33,654 bases of DNA, from the NCBI GenBank assembly GCA_902775555.1, contig CACYMQ010000023.1, positions 1 to 33,654 on the forward strand. The letters are read 5' to 3'. A program made the position numbers and the translations under genes. Of this stretch, positions 166 to 33,569 are shown in pieces. The first letter of the stretch is position 1, and the number at the start of each line of letters is the position of its first letter. The stretch is from an uncultured Lachnospiraceae bacterium. GTDB lineage: Bacteria > Bacillota > Clostridia > Lachnospirales > Lachnospiraceae. Below the pieces are notes generated by a model, which was not told the DNA's origin, did no database searches, and saw only the letters and a program-made list of their open reading frames with translations.

Positions 166-3100
166 TTAGTTCTCTCTCCGCTTGCGGATCACTACATATG
201 CAGCGCCTGCTGCGGACATGAGCATGAGCATGATGAGAAGTGTGATCGGTGTATCATCACCGGTCTGTACGGTCTTCTCGGTTGCGGTTGCGATCTCAGC
301 TACATGATGCTTCAGTGTATCAACTTCGATGGTCTCGGTCGTCTCAACACCGGTCTGTACGCTGTAGCCTTCCGGTACCTTCGTAACCTTGATCTTGTAA
401 GTACCAACCTTAGCTGTGTACTTGCCATTCTTCTTCTCCGCAAGGTCTCTGATCATACCGTCCTTGTCGGTCTTGAACTCATGAACCGTGCCATCCGGAT
501 AAGTAACCTCAACGGTTGCATTCGGTACAGGCTGCTTGGTCTTCTGATCGATGACCTTGATATCCAGACCACCGGTCTTCGGTGCGATCTTCGCCTCAAG
601 CTCGGTCAGCTTGGAGGTCTCAACCTTACCTGTCTGCTCTTTGCCTGTTGTTACGCGATATCCTTCCGGAACCTCGGTTACGGTATACTTGTACTCACCA
701 ACCTCAGATGTGTAGTTTCCGAACTGATCCTTCTTAGCGTACTCGGTTATCTGGCCATTCTCATCTGTGACGAATTCCTTCTCCTCGCCGCTCGGTGTCT
801 TAATTACGACCTTAGCGCCCGAAACTACTTCATTGGTCTCCTCATCATAAACCGTGATGATGATACCACCGAGGTCGGTAGCGATCACTGCTTCGTGATG
901 ACCTTCGCCATCCTTCGGAACTACAACCTTGCCAACCTCACCGGTCTTAACGTCATAGCCTGTAGGTACGTCGCTTACTGTAATGGTGTACTCGCCTGAC
1001 GGTACAGTCGGGATCTTGCCGTCCTTATCAACGACTTCACCCTTCTCATTGGTCTTGTAGGTCGTCTTCTTGCCATTCTGGTCTGTAACTACAACGGTTG
1101 CATCCGGTACATCAAGTCCGGACTTCTCCTCTGTTACATGAACGGAGATCTTACCTGTGTCTTTCTTCTTGTAGTTGTTAACCAGTTCAGCCTCTGTCGT
1201 TGTACCCTTAACCACCGTTGCCTCTGTAGTTGTTACACCACCTGTACGATCATAGCCATCTACATTGATATCAGCCGTATCTTCCGTAATGGTGTACTTT
1301 CCTGCCAGCAGGTTATTGATGGTCAGACCACCGTCAACCTTTACATCCAGCAGAACAGCGGTATCACTCAGAGTTCCGTCAGCCTTCACATACTTGCCGG
1401 CTGCATTCTGTACAGTTACCTTGAAGGAAGTCTTGGATGTCTTATCGCCACCCACGGTCTTCTTGATCTTCAAAGCTCCTTTTACCTCAGTGTAAATGTT
1501 CTCCAGATCAGCCTTACCGTTTACAACAGTATTTGCCGCATCAACCTTAACCTCTGTACGGGTTGCAAATGTACTACTTTCCTTATCGAAGGAGAATCCT
1601 GTTACATTTGCCGCATCGTTCGTATCCTCTTCAACAACATATTCGCCAAGAGGAATATTATTGATCGTCAGCCCTGCAAGCGGAACATCGATCGTGGTCT
1701 TGGTTGCAGAGGTTGTACCCTGTGCATCCGTTACATAAAGCTGCTTGGTCTCATTGTATACAGTTACCTTGAAGCTGTCCTTTGCCGGAACATTTCCTGT
1801 ATCGGAGGAAACCTTCTTTGTGATGGCAAGGGATCCCTTCTTCGGAGCATCCAGAAGAACGATGGTTCCGTCTGCCTTCTGCTCTACATCTCCGGATACG
1901 GTGATCAGTGTTACCTTGTAACCTGCAGCAACCGTTTCATCCTTCTCTACCTTAAACTCTACTGCTGTCGTAACCTTCTCATAACCATTCGGCTCAACTG
2001 TCTCTACGAAGGAGTAGGTACCCTCTTCAAGATCCAGTGCCTTTGCTGTAGTTGTGGAGGTCCATGTTACCTTTGTCTGATCCGGCTTGGTCAGCTCGAT
2101 GGTCGCACCTGCGATCTCGTCGCCGCTCAGTGCATCTGCCTTGCTGATGTATACCTTGTAGGTATCCGGCTTCGGCTGCTGATAGGTATAAACATTTACC
2201 AGCTGCTTTGTTGCATCCTTTGCAGCAGAGGTAAGCTCAACTGCAGTTGCTCCTGTGTAGCCGGTGGTGCTGCTTGCGGTGTCCAGGGTAAGGGTTGCAT
2301 CCACATTGTTTACATCTGCAGATACCTCGCTGATGCTGTACTTGCCCAGCGGAAGATCATTGATGGTGATGGATGCGGTCCGGCTTACGGTAAGTCCCGG
2401 ATCATTCTCTACAGCTTCACCTGCTGCATTGATAAATTTACCTGCTTCGTTCTTGATCTGTACCTGGTATGCCTTATCCTCTGCCTTGGCAGCGATAACG
2501 GCCGGTGCACCGCCATTTACGGTAACCGACTTGGTTACGGTCAGCGAGCCCTTCTCTACCTTCGTGTACTTGTTCGTGATGGTAACCTGTGCGGTTCCAC
2601 CCTTTGTAACGTTCTTCGGGCCTACAGTAGTTGAAGAACCTGCAACATCATAGATATATGTCGTCGTTCCATCCACTACATTTCCCGTACCGCTCTCAAC
2701 TACCGAGTATTCTCCGGTAGGAAGATCTGTAAGGGTTGCCTTGCCGTTTGTAAATGCTGTCGGGTATGCCAGTTCTCTCTCAAAGCTGTCCGGTCCCGTT
2801 ACCTTAAAGGTAAGTCCGGTGAGCAGATTGTCTGCCGGCTTATCGCCAAGGAAGGACTTTGTGATCTCCAGGCTTCCCAGATCTCTTGTGTACTCATTTG
2901 TCAGTGCTGCAGTTCTTGTCTGACCCTTTGTTACGGTGGCCGTAACGGATCCGTTTGCCGTCAGGGTATAGCCCTTAACCTGTGCATCAGTAACATTCTC
3001 GGTTACCGTGTATGAGCCTGTCGGAACATTGCTGATCTGAAGCGGAACATTTGCCGTAATGGTAAGTCCCGGATCCTGATCTACAAGAGTACCTGATGCA

Positions 3101-6100
3101 TTCAGATACTTGGTTCCGTTCATGATGGTGATCTTGAACACTGTCTTCGGAATATCCGAACCGATCAGTGTCTTTGTAACCGTCAGCTGACCCTTATCTC
3201 TTTCGTAACTGTTGATCAGTTCTACTTCTGTTAGTTTGCCCTTCTCAACGATCTTGGTCTCCGTTGTCTTGCTTCCGTCTGCTCCCGTTGTAACAAGCGT
3301 GTAATTTGCAACGATCGTGCTGTCTGCTACTTCGGTAACGGTATACTCACCTACCGGAACATTCTCAATGGTAAGACCATCCTTCGTCGAAACTGTAATA
3401 TGGGTCTCAGCATCAACCAGTGTTCCACTCAATGTCAGGTACTTCTGACTTGCACCTTGACCTGTTGTGATCATCACCTTAACGGAATCCAGCGTAGTTC
3501 CCTTTACTGTCTTCTTGATCTTCAGTTTTCCTACATCCGGTGCCTTCATATTTGTGAAGACAACCTTGTCTGCATCTACATCCGAAGTTCCGTTATTGTA
3601 GATAACTTCCTTCTCCAGGCCCTTAGCACCTGCCGTGATCTTTACGGTTACCGTGTACTTGGTTTTGGTGTCATAAGTAATATCTGCAATATTTCCCGGC
3701 ACCTCTTCGATCACATACTCATCTTCTGTCGGTGCGTTGTAACTGATACTTGTAAATGTCACAGTACCGTCTGCAGCATTGGACGAGGTTTGAATCACGC
3801 CTGAATCAGCCTTCTTCGAAAGCTTAAACTGGAAGTCACCCGCTGTCTGTGCGATCTCGGTATTGCCCTCCATCAGCTTCTTCGTCGCTGCAAGATCAAC
3901 AGAAATCGGCTGATACTCATCTACCATTACGATAGTGCTGTTATCGATCTTACTTCCCTTGGTACCCTGTGCATCCGAAGCATATACTTCCCCATTCTCC
4001 AGGATGAAGTACATATCATTTGCTATCTTGAAGCCATTTGCATTAGGTGCTGTTACTTCATGAAGGGTATAGGTTCCGTCAGGAAGATTCTTGATCTCGG
4101 TGGATGTTGTACCGGAAATCCAGCTAAGTGTATCCCCATCAACAGTCGATACAAAGCTTGCGCCATTACCTAACTGAACATCCGTAAGCTTGAAGGTAAC
4201 CTTATCGGTAGAGCCTGCCTTAACGCCTGTCAGTGTCAGGGTTGCGCCTGCAAGCTCAGCTCCTGCTGTGGTTCCTGCCTTCTTGCTGATCTTAACGTCC
4301 GTCTTCGGCTCATCTCTCTTAACGTTGGTGAACTCAGGCTTCGTTGTATTCACGCCTGTTCCGTTCTTATCCGCGTAGGAAACTGCAGCCTGAAGTCCTG
4401 TTGCTGTAGCTGTTACCGTTACAGTTGCCGTGTACTCTTCCTCAGAATAAGTGATCAGCGGGTCTGCTGTCTGCGGCTTAACCTCTGTCAGCTTGTAGGT
4501 ATATGTACCTTCCTTGCTGAAGGACAGCGTATCAAAGGTTACATCGCCATTTGCAACATTCGTCTTTGTGTCATCTACAGTGTTTTCAACCGGAGCTGTT
4601 CCCTTCAGGTTGAAGGAGAACTGACCTGCTGTAAGTGTACCATTTGTAAATACCTTCTTTGCTACGATATTTACATCGATCGGCTGATACTCATCTACCA
4701 TTACGATAGTGCTGTTACCGATCTTACTTCCCTTAGTACCCTGTGCATCCGAAGCATATACTTCCCCATTCTCCAGGATGAAGTACATATCATTTGCTAC
4801 CTTGAAGCCATTTGCATCAGGTGCTGTTACCTCATGAAGGGTATAGGTTCCGTCAGGAAGATTCTTGATCTCGGTTTCTGTTGTACCGGAGATCCACTTA
4901 AGCTCATCACCATCGGTCTTTGTTTCAATCTTTGCACCGGTACCTTCTACAACATCACTCACCTTGAAGGTAACCTTATCGGTAGAGCCCTTCTTAACGC
5001 CTGTCAGCTTCAGTGTAGCGCCTGCAAGTTCAGGTCCTGCTGCGGTTCCGGCCTTCTTGCTGATCCTGACATCCGTCTTACTCTCAGTCTTCTTTACATT
5101 GACGAACTCAGGCTTAATGGCATCTACCACGCCATCCTGATCGGCATAGGCGATCGTGGTCTTAAGACCCGTATCTGTTGCCGAAACAGTTACCGTTATG
5201 GTGTAAACCCTATCAGAATAAGTGATATTGGGATCCTTTGTTGCAGGTTCAACCTCAGTCAGCTCATATGTGTATGTACCGACTGCGCTGTAAGCAATCT
5301 CTGTGAATGTTACATCGCCATTTGCTGCATTTCCTACAGTTTCGTCTACAGTATTTGTATCCGGAGTCTTTCCCTTCAGGTGGAAGGAGAACTGATTGGC
5401 TGTAAGTGTATCATTCTGCAGAGTCTTCTTTGCTGTAAGCTGAACCTTGACCGGTGTATAGGCATCCTCCATGGTGATCTTCTTGTCTGTGATCTCGGTG
5501 CCCTTTGTACCGTTCTTGTTCTCGTATACCTTGCCGTCCTCAATGATGAAGGAGATCGCTTCGCTCTTATCGAAGCCCTGCGGTGCAGTTGTCTCGGTCA
5601 GTGTATATGTTCCGTTCGGAAGGTTCTTGACCTTGGTCGCACCTGTTCCGGAAATCCACTCTATGGAGGTTCCGTCAGCAGTCGTCTTCAGGCTTGCACC
5701 TGTACCTGTTTCTACATCCGCAATCTTGAAGGTGATCGCATCTGTGCTTCCGGGCTTTGTTCCTGTCAGCGTCAGTGTTGCACCTGCAAGCTCTGTTGTA
5801 GTTCCGGCAATCACCTTGCTGAAGATTACATCAGTTAAGACCTCGGTCTTCTTGGTATTGACGAACTCAACCTTATCTGCTTCTACTTCGGCTTTTGCCT
5901 TATTTGTATAAGTTACCTTTGCAGCCAGCCCTGTAGCTGTTGCAGTTACATCTACCGTTACCGTATATTCCTCAGCGGAATATGTGATATCGGGATCAGG
6001 CGTCGCCGGCTTTACCTCAGTAAGCTTGTACTCATACTTGCCCACTGAGTTGTAAGAAATCTCCGTGAATGTCACCGATCCGTCAGCAGCGTTACCTACA

Positions 6101-9100
6101 GTCTCATCAATGTTATTGGTTGCAGATGATGTTCCCTTCAGATTGAAGGAGAACTGATCCTTTACCAGGGTATCATTCTCAAGTGTCTTCTTTGCTGCGA
6201 TCTGAACCTCGATTGGAAGGAACGCATCCTCCATGGTGATCTTCTTGTCTGTGATCTCGGCGCCCTTAACACCCGCATTATTCTCGTAAACCTTACCGTT
6301 TTCAAGAATGAAGGAGATCTTCTCACTCTTGCTGAAGCCCTGCGGTGCAGTCATCTCGGTCAGAGTATAGATACCGTTCGGAAGCTTCTCTACTGTCGTA
6401 GCTCCGGTTCCGGATACCCAGGATACCTTTGTATCACTTTCGCTCAGTGCCTCATCCTTGGCACCTGTTCCAAACTTTACATTATCAAGGTCAAATGTAA
6501 TGGCACCTGATCCATCCGCTTTTCTTCCGGTCAGTTCCAGGGTAGCGCCTGCAAGTTCGGTCGTGGTACCGGCCATCACCTTGCTGATCACAACATCGGT
6601 GGAACCGTTATCGATCAGGATCACTTTATTCTCGTTTATCTCTGTCGTTCCGTCTTCTTTGTATACCTTGTTGTCTTTTACAACGAACTTAAAGTCGTTT
6701 GCGACTGCATATCCCGTAGGTGCAGACACCTCATGCAGTGTGTACTTTCCATTCGGAAGATTATTAACTGTGGTAAGTGTTGTTCCGGAGATCCAGGACA
6801 GCGTCTTTCCGTCTGCGCTTACTGCCAGATCCTTTACACCCGCACCCTGCGCTACCTGATCGGTTGTAAACTTAACCGGAGTAGTTCCTGTTCCAACCGT
6901 TCCGGTCAGCGTCAGGCTTGCACCCTCAATCTCCTCGCCACCGAGGTTCTGCTTGCTGAGCTTAACATTTGTGGAAGGATACTGGTTCTTGAAGTTCAGA
7001 ACTACATCGTCATCCTTTGCAAATGTCTGAGCAACCGTATAATTGCCCTGGCTTGCCGTACCATCTGTCTTATAATCTGTGCTTCCTGCGCCAACCGAGT
7101 AGCTTACGCTAACCTTCGCGCCGGACGCGTCATAATTTGTTTCTACAATATTGTAATCGCCAACTTCCAGCTCATAAGCTTCTTTCATCTTATAGCTGCC
7201 GTCATTCTGCTTCTCGAATACATCTGTATCCTTCAGTGCAAATGTTGCAACAACTGTTCCGTCCTTCTTCTGAACCTCAAAGCTGAGGGTTTCCAGATCA
7301 GATGCAACAACCGCACCGCCAAAGGACTTGGTGAGGGTTAGCTTTGCGGTATCTGTAAGCGTGGTATTCTTAAATGTACAACCATCAGCGTCAAGCTCAT
7401 CAGAGAATTGACCTGTCGCCGGATCAAAGCTTCCATAATACTTTACCACACCAGGAACTTTAACCTGCGTCCCATCAAGATCCTTAACGATCACATTAAA
7501 GGTTGCATATATTTCCTTTGTACTATCGAGCTTATATGCACCATCTGTATCCTCTGCCTTCTTCGTCTCTTTGATCAGGAAGACATTATCACCCTTCTGC
7601 ATATTCGAAGCGGCAAAATTAATACGGTTTTTATTATTTACAACCTTGTATGGTGTAGTAGTCCCTGTCGGTTGCCCATCAATATCAACAACCTGGATTT
7701 CAACGGGGACAAAATCAGTGCCGTCAAATCTGTAGAGGCTGAATTCAAACTTCTGATCCTCTGTGGCATCAACTCCATCTACAGTCTTAAATGCCTGCAA
7801 AAGCACCGAAGACACACCTTCCGGTTTGAGTCCACGATATACAAAGTGGAACTCACCATTTAAGATTTCAAAAGGCGCCGCGCTGATAACCCATCCACAG
7901 GATGCATTACCAATATCAGCTGTTACCTTGGGATTAGGAAGCAGGAACATTCCGCCCGCTTTATCCTGCTTAAATGTCGCATTCGGATCCATATTGGTCA
8001 CATTCCAGACAAGCCCCTGAGCAACCTGATCCGCATTTATATTCTTCGGGTTCTTATATTCCTGGTTTACAGTTTCCGTAGACTTCATTCCATCGCCGTT
8101 GTCTACGTGAGCTTTACCAATCACAACATCTTTTGTGGACTTAAAGTTAAATACAATTATCTGCTTCGGGTTCTTCTTGATCTTAAGAACCTCTCCCTTA
8201 GCAATATAACTTGCGTACTTATCTCCATCAATATAGATGGTTGCGCCATCCGGCAAGCTGGTTGTATCAATACGCAGCTCTTCCCCGACTATATTAATAT
8301 TGACATCCGTGGGTGCCTGAGCTGCAAGATCCGCTGAAACTGTCAGCATATGATTGATCATTGAATCAACTTTTGCATTGATAGACGCTTTGTCAGCCCC
8401 CACAGCAACTGCCACATTGGGTTGCGAGCTGGTCACCTGCGATTCACAGCCATTACCAACTATTACCACAGGAGTCTTCGGTGTTTCATTACCAAACTGA
8501 AGGCTTTCTCCGCTTTTAATTTCTCCAATTAAAAATGTGCCCGGAACCTGCTTGTCGCCAATACCGGAAAGATCCGGCTCCATATAGTTTGCATTGTTCG
8601 GATTACTGTAAACTTTAGTAGCCAGGTTCGTCTCACTATGATGACGCTGAGTGATTTCCGGCGCGGTCAGACCATAGTAAAGCGAATCGCCAAGGATATC
8701 AAACAACGTATAATCCTTGGATGTCTTAACCTTTGACAGGTTAATAACCTGCTTTACATATTCAGTTTCAGTATTGAGATCCCTCTGTTTCTGCAGAGTA
8801 GGATCGACCGTAACTGTATATCCATTCAGCACCTTAACATCTTTGTTAACAATCAGATTACCATTTATAATCTGTGACTGAGTTGGTGCTTCGCCCTCTT
8901 CTGCCTGGCGGATCTGTACATCAACAGTCCAAGACGTTGAGTATTTTTCGTCCTGCGATACTCCATTAATATTTGTCCAATCCGGATTCTCTACCTTATA
9001 GACGAGTTTTTCGGATGTACCATCGGAAGTAATCTTAGTTACGTAGTAAGAAGTCTCTGTACTCTGATGTGTACCCGTAGCCAGTAGGTAAAAATTGTCC

Positions 9101-9816
9101 TGATCTGTTATTGTTCCTGCTTCAGGATCAAAAACAAACTCCACTTCATATGCATTATGACCCTTGAACAGAGTAATTTCACCATTATAACCTGTAACTG
9201 AAGAACCAGAGAACAGATAGCCATCAATTGTAGATGTCTGGCCCATAAGGTTGTTGTAAGATGCACCATAAGCAACAACTTCAGTACCATACGGCCAATA
9301 CGTCTGCTGCTTGGTCACATACGCAGGTGAATCTCCATACAGTAAACGAAGAGACACATCATACTTTGCAGGGTCATACCCTCCATCCAGATCCGTCCAC
9401 GAAGTCTTTTTCTTAACGGGACTCCAGGGATTCTCTTGATAGTCTTCCTCATCCGTAGTATAGAAATTCTTAATTTCAACTGTCTGTGTTGCCTGATTCA
9501 GATTATTGACTATGACAAAACCATAACCCGCAACGTCCTTCGTCCCCTTTTTGTAAAGCGTTGCAACTACATGGTAGTTTTGCGCAGTCTGATCATTTCC
9601 TTCGTAGGAAATGTTAGGCGTATGCGGATTCTCTAGATCAAACTGTTTAAAGTTGATCGTTACTGAAATCGTATCGCCATCCACCTGTGCAGCGTAAACG
9701 TCCTTCGCGCCCGGAATGATCGGAAGCATGGTTACTGCCATAACAACAGCCATGCAGATCGCGGCGAAGCGTTTCCACACTCTCGTGTTTCTTAACCCTC
9801 TCTTCTTTTCAGCCAT
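166..9816 (-). CDS. Giant LPXTG-type surface adhesin with SpaA/Cna-B and FctA-like repeats
   Basis: This 3216-residue secreted protein is predicted to be covalently anchored to peptidoglycan by a sortase. The start at 9816 is preferred over an upstream ATG at 9846 because GGAGG lies 4 nt before it. Residues 1-45 are a basic/hydrophobic signal peptide. Residues about 430-650 resemble a choice-of-anchor-A/adhesin head. Residues about 1000-2090 alternate SpaA/Cna-B domains (TLTE, TLHE motifs) with FctA-like pilin isopeptide domains, the latter starting near 1199, 1452, 1711 and 1969. Residues about 2090-2880 hold further short Cna-B/DUF5979-like modules (starts near 2090, 2209, 2312, 2419, 2657, 2777, plus a SpaA unit near 2550). 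Three more Ig-like repeats begin near 2886, 2980 and 3082. The C-terminus has VQTGDD, a hydrophobic helix and RKRREN. Intramolecular isopeptide bonds are expected from the families. No sortase or second pilin gene is adjacent, so it is probably a stand-alone stalk adhesin. The ligand is unknown. Confidence 0.93.
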   Translation of the reverse strand: MAEKKRGLRNTRVWKRFAAICMAVVMAVTMLPIIPGAKDVYAAQVDGDTISVTINFKQFDLENPHTPNISYEGNDQTAQNYHVVATLYKKGTKDVAGYGFVIVNNLNQATQTVEIKNFYTTDEEDYQENPWSPVKKKTSWTDLDGGYDPAKYDVSLRLLYGDSPAYVTKQQTYWPYGTEVVAYGASYNNLMGQTSTIDGYLFSGSSVTGYNGEITLFKGHNAYEVEFVFDPEAGTITDQDNFYLLATGTHQSTETSYYVTKITSDGTSEKLVYKVENPDWTNINGVSQDEKYSTSWTVDVQIRQAEEGEAPTQSQIINGNLIVNKDVKVLNGYTVTVDPTLQKQRDLNTETEYVKQVINLSKVKTSKDYTLFDILGDSLYYGLTAPEITQRHHSETNLATKVYSNPNNANYMEPDLSGIGDKQVPGTFLIGEIKSGESLQFGNETPKTPVVIVGNGCESQVTSSQPNVAVAVGADKASINAKVDSMINHMLTVSADLAAQAPTDVNINIVGEELRIDTTSLPDGATIYIDGDKYASYIAKGEVLKIKKNPKQIIVFNFKSTKDVVIGKAHVDNGDGMKSTETVNQEYKNPKNINADQVAQGLVWNVTNMDPNATFKQDKAGGMFLLPNPKVTADIGNASCGWVISAAPFEILNGEFHFVYRGLKPEGVSSVLLQAFKTVDGVDATEDQKFEFSLYRFDGTDFVPVEIQVVDIDGQPTGTTTPYKVVNNKNRINFAASNMQKGDNVFLIKETKKAEDTDGAYKLDSTKEIYATFNVIVKDLDGTQVKVPGVVKYYGSFDPATGQFSDELDADGCTFKNTTLTDTAKLTLTKSFGGAVVASDLETLSFEVQKKDGTVVATFALKDTDVFEKQNDGSYKMKEAYELEVGDYNIVETNYDASGAKVSVSYSVGAGSTDYKTDGTASQGNYTVAQTFAKDDDVVLNFKNQYPSTNVKLSKQNLGGEEIEGASLTLTGTVGTGTTPVKFTTDQVAQGAGVKDLAVSADGKTLSWISGTTLTTVNNLPNGKYTLHEVSAPTGYAVANDFKFVVKDNKVYKEDGTTEINENKVILIDNGSTDVVISKVMAGTTTELAGATLELTGRKADGSGAITFDLDNVKFGTGAKDEALSESDTKVSWVSGTGATTVEKLPNGIYTLTEMTAPQGFSKSEKISFILENGKVYENNAGVKGAEITDKKITMEDAFLPIEVQIAAKKTLENDTLVKDQFSFNLKGTSSATNNIDETVGNAADGSVTFTEISYNSVGKYEYKLTEVKPATPDPDITYSAEEYTVTVDVTATATGLAAKVTYTNKAKAEVEADKVEFVNTKKTEVLTDVIFSKVIAGTTTELAGATLTLTGTKPGSTDAITFKIADVETGTGASLKTTADGTSIEWISGTGATKVKNLPNGTYTLTETTAPQGFDKSEAISFIIEDGKVYENKNGTKGTEITDKKITMEDAYTPVKVQLTAKKTLQNDTLTANQFSFHLKGKTPDTNTVDETVGNAANGDVTFTEIAYSAVGTYTYELTEVEPATKDPNITYSDRVYTITVTVSATDTGLKTTIAYADQDGVVDAIKPEFVNVKKTESKTDVRISKKAGTAAGPELAGATLKLTGVKKGSTDKVTFKVSDVVEGTGAKIETKTDGDELKWISGTTETEIKNLPDGTYTLHEVTAPDANGFKVANDMYFILENGEVYASDAQGTKGSKIGNSTIVMVDEYQPIDVNIVAKKVFTNGTLTAGQFSFNLKGTAPVENTVDDTKTNVANGDVTFDTLSFSKEGTYTYKLTEVKPQTADPLITYSEEEYTATVTVTATATGLQAAVSYADKNGTGVNTTKPEFTNVKRDEPKTDVKISKKAGTTAGAELAGATLTLTGVKAGSTDKVTFKLTDVQLGNGASFVSTVDGDTLSWISGTTSTEIKNLPDGTYTLHEVTAPNANGFKIANDMYFILENGEVYASDAQGTKGSKIDNSTIVMVDEYQPISVDLAATKKLMEGNTEIAQTAGDFQFKLSKKADSGVIQTSSNAADGTVTFTSISYNAPTEDEYVIEEVPGNIADITYDTKTKYTVTVKITAGAKGLEKEVIYNNGTSDVDADKVVFTNMKAPDVGKLKIKKTVKGTTLDSVKVMITTGQGASQKYLTLSGTLVDAETHITVSTKDGLTIENVPVGEYTVTEVADSTIVANYTLVTTGADGSKTTETKIVEKGKLTEVELINSYERDKGQLTVTKTLIGSDIPKTVFKITIMNGTKYLNASGTLVDQDPGLTITANVPLQISNVPTGSYTVTENVTDAQVKGYTLTANGSVTATVTKGQTRTAALTNEYTRDLGSLEITKSFLGDKPADNLLTGLTFKVTGPDSFERELAYPTAFTNGKATLTDLPTGEYSVVESGTGNVVDGTTTYIYDVAGSSTTVGPKNVTKGGTAQVTITNKYTKVEKGSLTVTKSVTVNGGAPAVIAAKAEDKAYQVQIKNEAGKFINAAGEAVENDPGLTVSRTASITINDLPLGKYSISEVSADVNNVDATLTLDTASSTTGYTGATAVELTSAAKDATKQLVNVYTYQQPKPDTYKVYISKADALSGDEIAGATIELTKPDQTKVTWTSTTTAKALDLEEGTYSFVETVEPNGYEKVTTAVEFKVEKDETVAAGYKVTLITVSGDVEQKADGTIVLLDAPKKGSLAITKKVSSDTGNVPAKDSFKVTVYNETKQLYVTDAQGTTSATKTTIDVPLAGLTINNIPLGEYVVEEDTNDAANVTGFSFDKESSTFATRTEVKVDAANTVVNGKADLENIYTEVKGALKIKKTVGGDKTSKTSFKVTVQNAAGKYVKADGTLSDTAVLLDVKVDGGLTINNLLAGKYTITEDTADINVDGYDRTGGVTTTEATVVKGTTTEAELVNNYKKKDTGKISVHVTEEKSGLDVPDATVVVTDQNGKKTTYKTNEKGEVVDKDGKIPTVPSGEYTITVSDVPTGYDVKTGEVGKVVVPKDGEGHHEAVIATDLGGIIITVYDEETNEVVSGAKVVIKTPSGEEKEFVTDENGQITEYAKKDQFGNYTSEVGEYKYTVTEVPEGYRVTTGKEQTGKVETSKLTELEAKIAPKTGGLDIKVIDQKTKQPVPNATVEVTYPDGTVHEFKTDKDGMIRDLAEKKNGKYTAKVGTYKIKVTKVPEGYSVQTGVETTETIEVDTLKHHVAEIATATEKTVQTGDDTPITLLIMLMLMSAAGAAYVVIRKRREN
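3908..4101. repeat. Near-identical internal repeat, copy A, in the adhesin gene
   Basis: This 194-nt block is repeated at 4682-4875 with 5 single-base differences by direct comparison, all transitions. The spacing of 774 nt equals 258 codons, one SpaA plus FctA bimodule. It encodes the end of a SpaA domain and the linker into an FctA-like domain. Confidence 0.9.
4682..4875. repeat. Near-identical internal repeat, copy B, in the adhesin gene
   Basis: Partner of the block at 3908-4101. At least one difference changes the protein (KIDNST versus KIGNST). The flanking parts of the two modules are clearly more diverged, which suggests recent duplication or local gene conversion rather than one old duplication. 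Confidence 0.9.
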
Positions 9817-10240
9817 AGTTCCTCCCTTTTTTTCTTTCTGGTGCACGCGAAACTAGCTAAACTTCTGTGCTGATAGGTCTACTGGTTACATTTATGAAAA
9901 TCAGTCCGTTCTTGTTCAGATAACGAGCTGTGTTACAGTATAGACTGACACGAACAGAGCGAACATTACGAAAACAGACAGTGCGCCCTACCGCCGGAAC
10001 AGCGTAAAAATGAACGCACTAAGCCCCATAGCCCATGGCAATGGTTAGTTTAAATATAGCAAAACTAAACAAGTCTGGCAACGAATTTTGGGCAGTTCAC
10101 ATAATTTTCAACGTTTTACATAAAAATGCCGAAAACACGATTTTTCTATTTACAGTTTCCTCGGCTCAGATTTCCACCATATCATTGGATTCCTATTTCT
10201 TCTTGCACAAAATATAGCAGAAATTTCCTATTCTATTCAT
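9817..10240. other. Long AT-rich upstream region and leader of the adhesin
   Basis: This is the larger part of a 545-base gap between the adhesin start and the uvrB stop. On the minus strand it contains the promoter at 10053-10081 and a predicted untranslated leader of about 230 nt. The part from about 10035 to 10240 is much richer in A and T than the rest of the window. The leader can form a long-range stem from an AGTGCG/CGCACT pair. I recognise no known riboswitch. A 60-codon plus-strand ORF at 10035-10217 lacks supporting signals and I do not accept it. Confidence 0.6.
10053..10081 (-). promoter_or_regulatory. Sigma-A-type promoter of the adhesin gene
   Basis: Reading the minus strand, TTGCCA (10081-10076) is followed by a 17-nt spacer and TATATT (10058-10053), with TGC directly before the -10 box (extended -10). 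It is the best promoter match in the gap. A second weaker TATACT lies closer to the gene in the leader. Confidence 0.7.
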
Positions 10241-29988: not shown

Positions 29989-32727
29989 TTACTTCCGGGG
30001 AGACTTGGCCGGTTTCTTCTGGTTTGTCTTCCCCGAAGACTTAGCAGGCATTTTACCTCCCTCAAGATTGACAAAACCATTATTCTGCTTTTCGATCGCC
30101 GCGTAATGCAGGGGACTTTTGTCGAAGGGATCGATCTCCTTCATACTGCGCATACTGTTATACTTATCCCTGGCCTGACACATCTGGAAGGATTCTCTCT
30201 GCATATCCACATATCGCTCCAGCTGCCCGGACAGGGAATCCCTGGTCTTTAATGCAGCCATATATTTCTTAAATTCCCTTGAGGTCTTAAAGGTCTCCAT
30301 CTCCTTTAACAGATTTTCCTTTTCCTTCCCCTCGGCCTCGGCGATATCCATCTGAAGGGTCTGATATTTATCGGCCGTATCTGCCTGATCTACCAGATAT
30401 TCATTTGCTTTCTCCAGCGCTGCGTTCAGTTTCTTATAGGTTTCGGTCTCCACCACATCCCTCTGGTCAAAGGGAACCACCTCACCCCTATCCATGGCAT
30501 CGGCCAGATCCTTCCTGTACTCCTTATCCTTTATCTTTCCCTTCGGATCCTTCAGGTAATCCTTCTCACGTTTGAGCATACTCTTCTTTATGGTCCGAAC
30601 CCGGTCCTCGCTCATTTCATTCACTACATACAGCGGTAATCCGGCGGGACGCCGGGGATCTGTATGGATCCTGACCGGTGAAAGGGAGATCCTGGGATCG
30701 ATCAGTGTGGGATCCTTCAGGAGTTTATCCGTCTCATTCATCAAAGCACGGAAATCCTTATCACTGTTTGCTGCGGCCTTCGCCATATCCGTCTTTCTCG
30801 ACTCCGGTATCGTGTCTCCTTCCGGGATGGACACCTGCTCATCCGGGGCCTCCTCCAGAAGCGCTTCCATCTTCTGTACGGAATCATAAAGGCTTCCCTT
30901 TCCGTGATCCAGGAAGGCTTCGCGGAAAGCGTAGTCATTGGCCTGAATCTTGTTGCATGCATCACCAACGGCAGTCTGAAGCTTTTTCTTCAGATTATTT
31001 GATTTGGTGAGCTTGCCGAAAAGATTTGCGCCCATGTCGCCCTGGCCGGGCTGTGGATTCTTATAACTAAGCTGCCCGTACGCAGAATAAAGGTCAAGTT
31101 CCTCATCCGGCACGACCTTCGGTACCTCCGTATCCAGTTTTCCGGGAGGCATGGTCGCATATACCTTCTCACTTTTCTTTATTCCGGTCTTCACCACATT
31201 CAGACGTTTTACTGCTGCCTGGATCTCCCGGCCACTCAGACCATAACCCTGCATGATCATGGCGAAAGCATCCGGAGACAGGGCCGTGATCGCATCAGCC
31301 ATGGACTTCGGGATCACCCTGAGGTTCTCATACTGGGTAAATCCTGCGGTTCTTTCCGGATAAGCGAGGAATGCCAGATCATTATCGATTCCCTGCACGC
31401 CGGAAAGATTTCCTTTTTTATCATATTGGTAGAAGGCATTCGCCACATGTCGGTCGATATTTCCGCAAATATAATCCAGAACCTGCAAAGAGGCAATCTT
31501 CTTATTTGCTCCTGCAGACTGCTCGATCCTGGTGTTATCCATCTTTACGAAATTCCCGAAGAAGGAAATATTCGAGATGTCCTCACCGACGGCCGGCATC
31601 ATGGCAACCCCTTTTTTCCTGACCAGCTTTCCGTCTTCAACGCCCCAGACATTCATCTTCCTGGAGAATGCAATGATATCGCCGCAACCCAGAAGTTCTG
31701 CCACATCGCTCATCAGCGCATTCCGCGCGCCGATATCCGAAGTGTGATCCATATAGAGCGAGCGGTGCGTCTGTTCAACAAAGCGTGCTTTCAGGATCTT
31801 ACCGGTATAGTCCATAAGACCGAAGATTGCCTGCATCTTATTCCGTTTACGCTCCTCCGGTGTCTTACTTTCATCCTTATCCAATGTCCCGATATCCTTC
31901 AGTAACCTGTCAAAGGAGGTTATTCCCCTGTCATGTAATGATTTTTTCAGATTCTTGAGCAGCTTGTCCGGATTGTTATCACAATTACTGAGCATTAGAT
32001 TCGACGAGCCCTCGAGCATATCGAAAAGATCGGTCCGTTCCAGCCCCTCTGCCAGACGGTACAGCCTGCTTACGCCGTTTTTTCCGGGAATGAGCCATGG
32101 TTCCAGGACCGGGTACTTCTCCCGAATCTCTCCGGCGATCCGCTCTTCATCCTGAAGGGAGGGATCCTTATCCGAATCCTTATCATAGGTGGAACTCTCC
32201 GTAAAATACATCTCCACCCGGTCTTTCTTTCTGATACCTTCCGCCGGCTCATCCTCAATGGTCACCGGGATCAGGTACCTGGTATTCATTCCGGCTCCGG
32301 TTTTCTTCATCTCGGAAAGACCTTTCCCATCCAGGACCACGGTACGGGTCTTGGATTTGTCATAGAATTCCTCGATGGTGAGAAGCTGCGGATCCTCTTC
32401 CTTTGCTATGCGGTTTTTATACCGGGTCAGAGCCATCACGTCCTTGGAGAACTTTTTGATGAGACGGAAATACAGTTCTGCCTCTTTCCCTGCATCTTCG
32501 CCGCTCTTTGCCTCATCGTATTTCTTCTTCAGTGCGATCCCGCATTTTTCATAGGATTCCAGCAGGCTGCCTGCAGCTTCCGCAGTCAGAAGTGTCTTTT
32601 CTTCTTTCAGCCGGCTGACCTGATCGTACAGTTCCTTCAGCTGCTCGGCTTCATTTCCTGCACCCAGTTTTTCTTCTGCTTCCTTCATCAGATCGCGACG
32701 CTTATCAACTCTGTTTTCACCAGGCAT
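29989..32727 (-). CDS. Large protein with HipA/PI3K/Fam20-like kinase signature, function unknown
   Basis: A 912-residue protein without signal peptide or transmembrane helices. The start at 32727 follows GGAGG by 8 nt; an upstream ATG at 32766 has no such site. Residues 1-110 are helical and coiled-coil-like. Residues about 325-455 carry the recognisable part: SDIGARNALMSDVAELLG (330-347), then GVAMMPAVGED (373-383), a catalytic-loop-like IDRHVAN (424-430: Asp425, His427, Asn430) and a metal-binding-like GIDNDLAF (446-453: Asp448). The D-R-H-x-x-N then D-N-D order is that of HipA, PI3/4-kinase and Fam20-type kinases. The C-terminal 400 residues are charged and helical, ending in a Lys/Pro/Ser-rich tail. 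Target and activity are unknown. It sits alone between the membrane ORFs and the Fur-family gene, with no antitoxin-like partner such as hipB. Confidence 0.8.
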   Translation of the reverse strand: MPGENRVDKRRDLMKEAEEKLGAGNEAEQLKELYDQVSRLKEEKTLLTAEAAGSLLESYEKCGIALKKKYDEAKSGEDAGKEAELYFRLIKKFSKDVMALTRYKNRIAKEEDPQLLTIEEFYDKSKTRTVVLDGKGLSEMKKTGAGMNTRYLIPVTIEDEPAEGIRKKDRVEMYFTESSTYDKDSDKDPSLQDEERIAGEIREKYPVLEPWLIPGKNGVSRLYRLAEGLERTDLFDMLEGSSNLMLSNCDNNPDKLLKNLKKSLHDRGITSFDRLLKDIGTLDKDESKTPEERKRNKMQAIFGLMDYTGKILKARFVEQTHRSLYMDHTSDIGARNALMSDVAELLGCGDIIAFSRKMNVWGVEDGKLVRKKGVAMMPAVGEDISNISFFGNFVKMDNTRIEQSAGANKKIASLQVLDYICGNIDRHVANAFYQYDKKGNLSGVQGIDNDLAFLAYPERTAGFTQYENLRVIPKSMADAITALSPDAFAMIMQGYGLSGREIQAAVKRLNVVKTGIKKSEKVYATMPPGKLDTEVPKVVPDEELDLYSAYGQLSYKNPQPGQGDMGANLFGKLTKSNNLKKKLQTAVGDACNKIQANDYAFREAFLDHGKGSLYDSVQKMEALLEEAPDEQVSIPEGDTIPESRKTDMAKAAANSDKDFRALMNETDKLLKDPTLIDPRISLSPVRIHTDPRRPAGLPLYVVNEMSEDRVRTIKKSMLKREKDYLKDPKGKIKDKEYRKDLADAMDRGEVVPFDQRDVVETETYKKLNAALEKANEYLVDQADTADKYQTLQMDIAEAEGKEKENLLKEMETFKTSREFKKYMAALKTRDSLSGQLERYVDMQRESFQMCQARDKYNSMRSMKEIDPFDKSPLHYAAIEKQNNGFVNLEGGKMPAKSSGKTNQKKPAKSPRK

Positions 32728-32816
32728 AACTTTGTCCTCCGTTATCGATATTTCTGATCCACACAAGATTCAAACCGATTCTACATCATGCAGAGCAACA
32801 AAAGCGCAACAACTCC

Positions 32817-32866: not shown

Positions 32867-33262
32867 TCACCCAAATGTGATCACCGCAAGGATCCACACA
32901 TAACACAGGGTTTTCGGTATCATCAGCATACCAAGCTTCGGACGCAACTTCCCATAAACCGCGACGGGAAGATAGGTAAGAAAACTAAGGATCACCGCAA
33001 GAATGATCTGTATATAGATTCCGGTCCCATAATTCATTGCATGGCTGATCACCCGGAGATAACCGATGATCGTAAGGATCCCAATGAGTACAAAAGGCAG
33101 ATTCCGGATCCACGCCCACTTTACGCTGCCCTCCGAAGAAAACCACCGGTTCTGCGGGAAGAGAAGCAGGATGATCCGGATCACAGTGAGCCAGAGGATC
33201 GCCTGCTCTACCCAGAGATTATATGCCGCCGTCTGACTCTCTGTCCCGGCATGGTATTCCAT
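32867..33262 (-). CDS. Membrane protein, probable C-terminal part of a split gene
   Basis: 131 residues from the ATG at 33262, which has GAGGTG upstream; a start at 33298 lacks one. About four hydrophobic helices are visible (around LWVEQAILWLTVIRIILLLF, PFVLIGILTIIGYL, YIQIILAVILSFLTYL and a final one). The upstream ORF stops 4 nt before this start in another frame. As I recall the family, a related membrane protein joins a MGDSFHLIPRI-type half to an LWVEQ...IRIIL half in one chain, which suggests this is the second half. Function unknown. Confidence 0.65.
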   Translation of the reverse strand: MEYHAGTESQTAAYNLWVEQAILWLTVIRIILLLFPQNRWFSSEGSVKWAWIRNLPFVLIGILTIIGYLRVISHAMNYGTGIYIQIILAVILSFLTYLPVAVYGKLRPKLGMLMIPKTLCYVWILAVITFG

Positions 33263-33266
33263 GGAA

Positions 33267-33569
33267 TCACCTCGTAATGGAAGAAATGAGATTCCCAAGC
33301 CCCAGGAAGAACCCCTGCTGTGATATACTTCCGCGCAGATTCACCATGATACGCGGAATCAGATGAAAGGAATCCCCCATCAGAAGAAGGAGTGTCAGCA
33401 GAAATCCGAAGAAATAACGCGAACGTTCCGTGTTGATGAGGGAATCCGCATCGGCGACACTCCATTTCCCTTTCAGTATGAAGATAAAGATGATAAGTAC
33501 AAGCAGATAGAGGATGCAAAAACCTGCTTCCCCGAGCCTTGCACCTAATGGTTTCTCATTCTCTTTCAT
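33267..33569 (-). CDS. Membrane protein, probable N-terminal part of a split gene
   Basis: 100 residues with two strong hydrophobic helices (FCILYLLVLIIFIFIL and FFGFLLTLLLLM), then GDSFHLIPRI and LGLGNLISSIT before a TGA. The start has AGAGGGAAA upstream and a promoter at 33624-33632. The stop and the next ATG are 4 nt apart in different frames. It may be a frameshifted gene, or two coupled subunits. Function unknown. Confidence 0.65.
   Translation of the reverse strand: MKENEKPLGARLGEAGFCILYLLVLIIFIFILKGKWSVADADSLINTERSRYFFGFLLTLLLLMGDSFHLIPRIMVNLRGSISQQGFFLGLGNLISSITR

What the first reader, a model, noticed from the sequence alone, without database searches (positions are those of the whole stretch)
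29989..32727. Unnamed 912-residue protein with a kinase-type active-site signature
The ordered motifs SDIGARN, IDRHVAN and GIDNDLAF match the catalytic Asp/Asn and metal-binding Asp of HipA, PI3/4-kinase and Fam20-like kinases. They are embedded in a long helical protein that is far larger than HipA and has no hipB partner. It may represent a separate kinase or nucleotidyl-transfer family.
Basis: partly seen in the sequence, partly recalled or inferred. Interest (0 to 1): 0.7.

Follow-up and report, generated by a model that had tools for sequence, protein, structure and literature searches.

The report
Lysine-less giant bacterial kinase family
This gene encodes a large unnamed enzyme with a kinase core, one of a multi-copy bacterial family with many members from ruminant stomachs, whose ATP-binding site lacks the usual lysine and whose closest known relatives are lipid and secreted-protein kinases of animals.

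Summary
The gene (29989-32727, minus strand, 912 codons, GGAGGA at 32740-32735) is real. In fetched relatives from a 61-genome genus survey, its Asp425, Asn430 and Asp448 are kept in 83 of 84, 83 of 84 and 84 of 85 domains that reach them. AlphaFold2 gives a confident two-lobed kinase domain (pLDDT 91.8). Foldseek puts phosphatidylinositol 4-kinase type II first (E 2e-6); profiles also match FAM20C (3e-8). HipA is distant.

New points. (1) The beta-3 lysine is absent (Thr/Ala/Ser in 81 of 81), while Arg150 beside the glycine-rich loop is invariant (79 of 79). A sister group and a Comamonas relative have a lysine there or next to it, so this looks like a WNK- or POMK-like rearranged site. (2) About 135 helical residues sit between beta-3 and helix C. 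(3) The family is multi-copy and patchy, often from ruminant genomes (24 of 80 listed titles name rumen, omasum or abomasum), and co-occurs with giant helical proteins. (4) The Comamonas relative lies near a secretion-chaperone gene.

Best reading: an active atypical kinase with unknown protein or phosphoinositide substrate. Action inside rumen eukaryotes is possible but unproven; no export route was found.

The parts
29989..32727 (-). 912-codon gene of the lysine-less kinase (with stop codon)
32735..32740 (-). Shine-Dalgarno GGAGGA before the ATG at 32727
   Evidence: sequence
32398..32727 (-). residues 1-110, N-terminal helical region (four helices)
   Evidence: model; partly conserved Leu33, Leu55, Asp96
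32197..32349 (-). residues 127-177, beta-1 to beta-3 of the kinase N-lobe with a glycine-rich loop around Gly144; Thr176 stands where the beta-3 lysine is expected
32278..32280 (-). codon of Arg150, invariant residue at the start of beta-2
   Evidence: 51 of 51; 79 of 79
31759..32163 (-). residues 189-323, helical insert between beta-3 and helix C
31693..31734 (-). residues 332-345, helix C with conserved Arg335-Asn336
31600..31665 (-). residues 355-376, beta-4 and beta-5 leading to the hinge
31438..31455 (-). residues 425-430, catalytic loop DRHVAN
31378..31386 (-). residues 448-450, DND metal-binding motif
30058..31020 (-). residues 570-890, C-terminal helical region

Best explanation
It is a catalytically competent atypical kinase of the phosphatidylinositol 4-kinase type II / FAM20 side of the protein-kinase-like superfamily. 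Shown by computation: a two-lobed kinase fold, intact catalytic Asp425, Asn430 and metal-binding Asp448, no lysine at the beta-3 position, and an invariant Arg150 by the glycine-rich loop. Inferred: Mg-ATP binds in the cleft, Arg150 (perhaps paired with Asp450 of the DND motif) replaces the missing lysine in holding the phosphates, Asp425 acts as the base, and the helical insert and the N- and C-terminal helical regions choose the substrate, either a protein or a phosphoinositide. The gene probably stands alone and belongs to a patchy, multi-copy family.
For: Kinase-domain model pLDDT 91.8, pTM 0.89. Foldseek ranks 1-10 are all PI4K type II, E 2.2e-6 to 1.7e-4, probability 1.00. Profile A1 against PDB sequences: FAM20C 3e-8, PI4K2A 8e-5. 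Pfam PI3_PI4_kinase matches 37 of 38 and Fam20C 32 of 38 domains at E up to 1. Catalytic residues kept in 83 of 84, 83 of 84 and 84 of 85. Beta-3 lysine position Thr 75, Ala 4, Ser 2 of 81; Arg150 79 of 79. Core dN/dS is 0.03 to 0.20 in seven pairs of relatives (the window gene itself was not in a pair).
Against: No activity has been measured. TM-scores to PI4K type II are low (0.31 to 0.41), perhaps because of the insert; with the whole protein no PDB match passes E 0.001. For the window protein PI3_PI4_kinase stays below Pfam's cut-off (17.7 against 27.1 bits). Loss of the beta-3 lysine is a usual mark of a pseudokinase. No conserved helix-C glutamate. The alignment across Arg150 is unstable: in three alignments the sister group shows Asp, Val, Val and Comamonas Glu, Val, Arg, so Arg150 as a new substitute is not proven. 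No coordinates could be inspected.
Confidence: 0.72

Rival explanations
1. An effector kinase: the protein leaves the bacterium by an unknown non-Sec route and modifies proteins or lipids of rumen ciliates, fungi or the animal host, much as LepB or MavQ of Legionella act on host phosphoinositides. This adds a place of action to the best explanation.
For: Of the 80 titles listed, 24 name rumen, omasum or abomasum and 19 more carry a RUG label (RUG as a rumen label is recalled). Patchy and multi-copy in the genus. Association with a 240-residue module carried mostly by giant helical proteins: strong matches (E below 1e-20) give 23 genomes with both, 6 and 5 with one, 27 with neither, Fisher p 6e-7; one protein carries both. 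The only match in 72,556 plasmid records lies two genes upstream of a CesT-type chaperone.
Against: The window protein has no signal peptide by eye (no predictor run). WXG100 gives no match in the own genome. Over 61 genomes WXG100 (matches at E up to 0.001) and phage-tail sheath do not track the kinase (p 0.12 and 1.0); in the 31 better genomes p is 0.066 and 0.25, so a weak WXG100 link is not excluded. The own genome has one sheath gene. Its four long copies lie among ordinary-looking genes (by eye). Fisher counts ignore kinship of genomes. No background rate of ruminant genomes was measured and the source of the window itself is not known. Comamonas is a distant Gram-negative.
Confidence: 0.28
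2. A pseudokinase, or a kinase-fold enzyme of other chemistry (AMPylation as in SelO, glutamylation as in SidJ), with the helical parts as scaffold.
For: No lysine at the beta-3 position in 81 of 81 domains; no conserved helix-C glutamate, Asn336 in 86 of 87. Kinase-fold enzymes of other chemistry exist (SidJ: abstract in a listing; SelO recalled).
Against: Asn430, Asp448 and the catalytic Asp425 are almost invariant, which would be unusual for a dead kinase. WNK is active without a beta-3 lysine and POMK lacks it too and phosphorylates mannose (passages).
Confidence: 0.2
3. An intracellular stress or anti-phage kinase of HipA-like role.
For: Foldseek lists HipT (probability up to 0.97). PADLOC candidate PDC-M03A (model PDLC04340) matches 17 of 51 members weakly, best E 3e-5. 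Patchy content fits conflict systems.
Against: HipA_C matches 1 of 38 domains. No HipB partner seen. The window's own domain has no PADLOC match up to E 1. No relative found in phage records at E up to 0.01 or in viral contigs. No recurrent partner gene in the flanks of 80 loci.
Confidence: 0.1

Closest known systems
Phosphatidylinositol 4-kinase type II (PI4K2A, PI4K2B)
   Same: Best fold match; catalytic loop and IDN motif align
   Different: Thr176 at the beta-3 lysine position, long helical insert before helix C, DND instead of DNG, large helical flanks
FAM20C / FAM20A / FAM20B
   Same: Best sequence-profile match, over the C-lobe with GNMDRH and LDNG
   Different: FAM20 proteins are secreted through the Sec route in animals (recalled); no signal peptide by eye here; the match covers the C-lobe only
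Legionella LepB, AnkK, MavQ and Lmor_1975 (PMC9758233, passages seen)
   Same: Bacterial kinase-fold proteins that the paper places near the FAM20/CotH or PI-kinase groups; Lmor_1975 has a helical insert of about 150 residues
   Different: Lmor_1975 keeps the Lys-Glu pair and has its insert between the lobes; here the insert lies between beta-3 and helix C. No sequences of these were compared here
WNK1 and POMK
   Same: Kinases whose beta-3 lysine is missing and replaced from beta-2 or the glycine loop (passages of PMC4718504 and PMC12599244)
   Different: Arg, not Lys, is the candidate substitute; another branch of the superfamily
CtkA and HipA/HipT
   Same: Kinase-fold bacterial proteins found by Foldseek
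   Different: Smaller, weak sequence kinship, HipB partner not seen here

Membership tests
Protein-kinase-like superfamily | two-lobed kinase fold | tested here: met
Protein-kinase-like superfamily | catalytic Asp, Asn and metal-binding Asp | tested here: met
Protein-kinase-like superfamily | lysine on beta-3 (usual, absent in WNK and POMK) | tested here: not met
   Thr/Ala/Ser in 81 of 81
PI3/PI4 kinase (Pfam PF00454) | score above the family's curated cut-off | tested here: not met
   17.7 against 27.1 bits for the window protein
PI3/PI4 kinase (Pfam PF00454) | phosphorylates phosphoinositides | not testable with these tools
   needs an assay
FAM20 (Pfam PF06702) | profile similarity | tested here: inconclusive
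   32 of 38 domains match at E up to 1, the window's own does not
FAM20 (Pfam PF06702) | secretory signal peptide | tested here: inconclusive
   N-terminus MPGENRVDKRRDLMKEA is charged; judged by eye only, no predictor run
HipA toxin-antitoxin | HipA_C domain | tested here: not met
   not found in the window protein up to E 1; 1 of 38 relatives, E 0.0066
HipA toxin-antitoxin | adjacent hipB gene | tested here: not met
   neighbours, judged by eye
Secreted effector kinase | delivery into another cell | not testable with these tools
   indirect hints only

The most novel reading that the evidence does not exclude
Gram-positive rumen bacteria own a large, modular arsenal of giant helical proteins, including a family of kinases with a rearranged, lysine-less active site, that act inside rumen ciliates, fungi or host cells: a Legionella-like effector repertoire in commensal Lachnospiraceae with an unknown delivery route.
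Probability: 0.22. Interest if true: 0.85.

Novelty: new variant of a known kind. Interest (0 to 1): 0.6.

Why it matters
The bacterial phosphoinositide kinases named in the one survey that I saw (LepB, AnkK, MavQ; PMC9758233, passages) are effectors that act inside eukaryotic cells. A multi-copy family of related kinases in gut bacteria that are not known as intracellular, beside giant modular helical proteins, would raise the testable question whether these bacteria manipulate rumen eukaryotes. The loss of the beta-3 lysine with an invariant arginine nearby offers a further natural test of how kinases can rebuild their ATP site.

Tried and rejected
Pure HipA reading: rejected on profile and context. 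Phage origin: no relative among 50,697 phage records at E up to 0.01 or in viral contigs (the pattern matched 32 stretches, none confirmed). Against that, a fold search of viral models gave one match below 0.001, a phage protein annotated as PI3K/PI4K-like (E 2.9e-4), and PHROG 3162 of unknown function matches at E 0.0078; these show remote kinship of the fold, not a source. Type VII secretion and contractile injection as the export route: neither WXG100 nor sheath genes track the kinase clearly. Recent transfer: mean G+C of gene and flank are 0.412 and 0.412 in 67 loci. Conserved partner gene: the only large cluster in the flanks of 80 loci is the kinase itself (76 loci); the next reach 10 and 9 loci and were not identified. 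RNA elements in the window: none at the gathering score. Giant neighbours: no Pfam match over cut-off in the 8 scanned. The 240-residue module: best Pfam match bMERB (Rab binding) at E 0.0038, below its cut-off and in 1 of 6 members; best PDB match CECR2 at E 0.0035; I take neither as credible.

Biases to know: the 51-row alignment was chosen by a motif search, and the scan of genome contigs needed an IDND-like pattern, so invariance counts are partly built in; the genus survey is the fairer one, although its profile comes from those rows. Its 94 pieces include the six sister-group proteins, exclude the window's own copy and eight rows with weak matches that were not fetched, and include 9 or 10 pieces that do not reach the catalytic residues. 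In one search kinase and module were counted at E below 1e-20 but WXG100 and sheath at E up to 0.001; one kinase-positive genome (G016) holds only a fragment with a stop.

Full report
Observation. The ORF at 29989-32727 (minus strand) is open for 912 codons from an ATG that has GGAGGA with a seven-base spacer. 47 of 51 aligned rows share Met at that position. The gene ends 75 bases before a downstream ORF that looks like a Fur-type regulator (by eye), which has its own promoter-like site in the gap. The gene therefore probably stands alone.

Fold. AlphaFold2 with 51 rows gave pLDDT 85.1 and pTM 0.86 for the whole protein and 91.8 and 0.89 for residues 112-562. The core has three strands (within residues 127-177), about 135 mostly helical residues (189-323), helix C (332-345), two strands to the hinge (355-376) and a C-lobe with the catalytic loop (425-430) and the DND motif (448-450). 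Foldseek with the domain finds PI4-kinase type II at ranks 1-10 (E 2.2e-6 to 1.7e-4), then PI4K III beta, CtkA, PI3-kinases and CotH. With the whole protein nothing in the PDB passes E 0.001, and PI4K II beta leads at 2.2e-3, probability 1.00. TM-scores are low (0.31 to 0.41 in the top ten), so the claim rests on fold, profile and motif together. Among viral models one phage PI3K/PI4K-like protein matches at 2.9e-4.

Profiles. The window protein alone reaches PI3_PI4_kinase at E 0.0035, below the curated score, and no NCBIfam family up to E 1. Of 38 relatives (its own domain included), 37 match PI3_PI4_kinase, 32 Fam20C and 1 HipA_C at E up to 1. The 38-row profile finds FAM20C (3e-8), FAM20A, PI4K2A (8e-5) and glycosaminoglycan xylosylkinase (0.0043; FAM20B by recall) among PDB sequences.

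Conservation. In a profile survey of 61 genomes of the genus, 35 match at E up to 0.001, 29 of them at E below 1e-20 (my count). In the fetched set (94 domain pieces, six sister-group proteins included, the window's own copy and eight weak rows not) Asp425 is kept in 83 of 84, Arg426 83 of 84, His427 74 of 84 (9 Asn), Asn430 83 of 84, Asp448 84 of 85, Asn449 85 of 85, Asp450 83 of 85 (2 Glu). One copy is degenerate (L202). In seven pairs of relatives the core has dN/dS 0.03 to 0.20, lower than the N-terminal part in six of seven and lower than the C-terminal part in six of seven.

The missing lysine. At the beta-3 position where a kinase carries its ATP lysine, 75 of 81 domains have Thr, 4 Ala and 2 Ser. 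Arg150, at the start of beta-2 after a glycine-rich stretch, is Arg in 79 of 79. A sister group of about 1,275 residues in 6 of 61 genomes, related over helix C and the C-lobe (hhalign probability 96.8, E 2.4e-10), has an invariant YYxKENLPF strand (6 of 6). The Comamonas relative has GVFKPL. In three MAFFT alignments the Comamonas lysine falls on Thr176 in all three; the sister lysine does so in one and is off by one in two (one of the six sister proteins was not in these alignments). The Arg150 column is not stable in them. The reading that the site was rebuilt as in WNK (lysine on beta-2) or POMK (lysine in the glycine loop, paired with an acidic residue of a DLD motif) is thus likely by analogy, not shown; the WNK and POMK facts come from passages of PMC4718504 and PMC12599244.

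Distribution. The own genome has four long copies (C23, C4, C10, C31) and one broken one (C3). With the single sequence 29 of 61 genus genomes match, and 14 of 299 in a family sample that includes two of the genus. In a phylum sample 6 of 398 match, only two of them (the own genome and one of the family) over more than 200 profile positions. In the genome collection 272 stretches matched the pattern, 211 encode a relative and the best 80 are listed. Most of these titles say Lachnospiraceae, Eubacterium or unnamed Clostridia, with a few Oscillospiraceae, an Erysipelotrichaceae and an Acholeplasmatales record. Of the 80 titles 24 name rumen, omasum or abomasum and 19 more carry RUG; the rest do not name an organ. 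No background rate was measured, and the source of the window itself is not known.

Context. The flanks of 80 loci show no common partner. In some genomes the kinases lie among giant helical proteins without Pfam match over cut-off. Some of these share non-kinase stretches with kinase proteins. One 240-residue module is found in 31 of 61 genus genomes, up to 15 matches per genome, and goes with the kinase (strong matches: 23 both, 6 kinase only, 5 module only, 27 neither, p 6e-7; in the 31 better genomes 16, 2, 1, 12, p 8e-6). Kinship of genomes is not corrected for. As a comparison WXG100 gives p 0.12 (0.066 in the better genomes) and sheath 1.0 (0.25), counted at a laxer threshold. In the loci at hand only 1 of 143 ORF pieces with a kinase match carries the module, so the link is genomic rather than a fixed fusion.

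The Comamonas relative. One of 72,556 plasmid records matches: an 809-residue protein annotated as phosphatidylinositol 4-kinase on a Comamonas endophytica plasmid. It matches the family profile over helix C and the C-lobe (5.6e-22), has a lysine at the beta-3 position and no long insert (by eye), and lies two genes upstream of a CesT-family chaperone (3.4e-20). This suggests, without proving it, that a relative is a type III effector. It says nothing on how a Gram-positive would export its copies.

Literature. The listings of searches (up to 20 titles each) showed no paper on this family; one search failed. The nearest is the Legionella pan-kinome (PMC9758233; passages): four new families cluster with FAM20/CotH together with LepB and AnkK, and Lmor_1975 has a helical insert of about 150 residues between the lobes but keeps its Lys-Glu pair. 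These were not compared by sequence here.

Verdict. A real, active-looking, unnamed atypical kinase family; new variant of a known kind. What it phosphorylates and where is open.

Noticed in passing
window 166-9846 (-): 3,226-residue surface protein with 12 SpaA-type and 4 FctA-type stretches and a borderline LPXTG anchor
   Followed up: no
window 32867-33298 and 33267-33569 (-): Two overlapping frames that look like one membrane protein split over two frames, near the contig end; may be a frameshift or an assembly error
   Followed up: no
L206 (own genome, contig C3, about 108818-109677): A fifth kinase copy broken into short frames, beside genes that look like an Hsp70 and a J-domain protein
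   Followed up: partly
L209-L214: Sister group of about 1,275-residue proteins with a beta-3 lysine, one long copy in each of 6 of 61 genus genomes
   Followed up: partly
L134 (5929-9477, 12526-15831 and others), L064, L078: Islands of giant helical proteins without Pfam match over cut-off; a 240-residue module with up to 15 matches in one genome
   Followed up: partly
L222 (3102-5531, 6191-6685): Comamonas plasmid kinase relative two genes upstream of a CesT-type secretion chaperone
   Followed up: partly
L105, L109, L120 and genus proteins of about 1,320-1,415 residues: Proteins with two kinase domains in tandem
   Followed up: no
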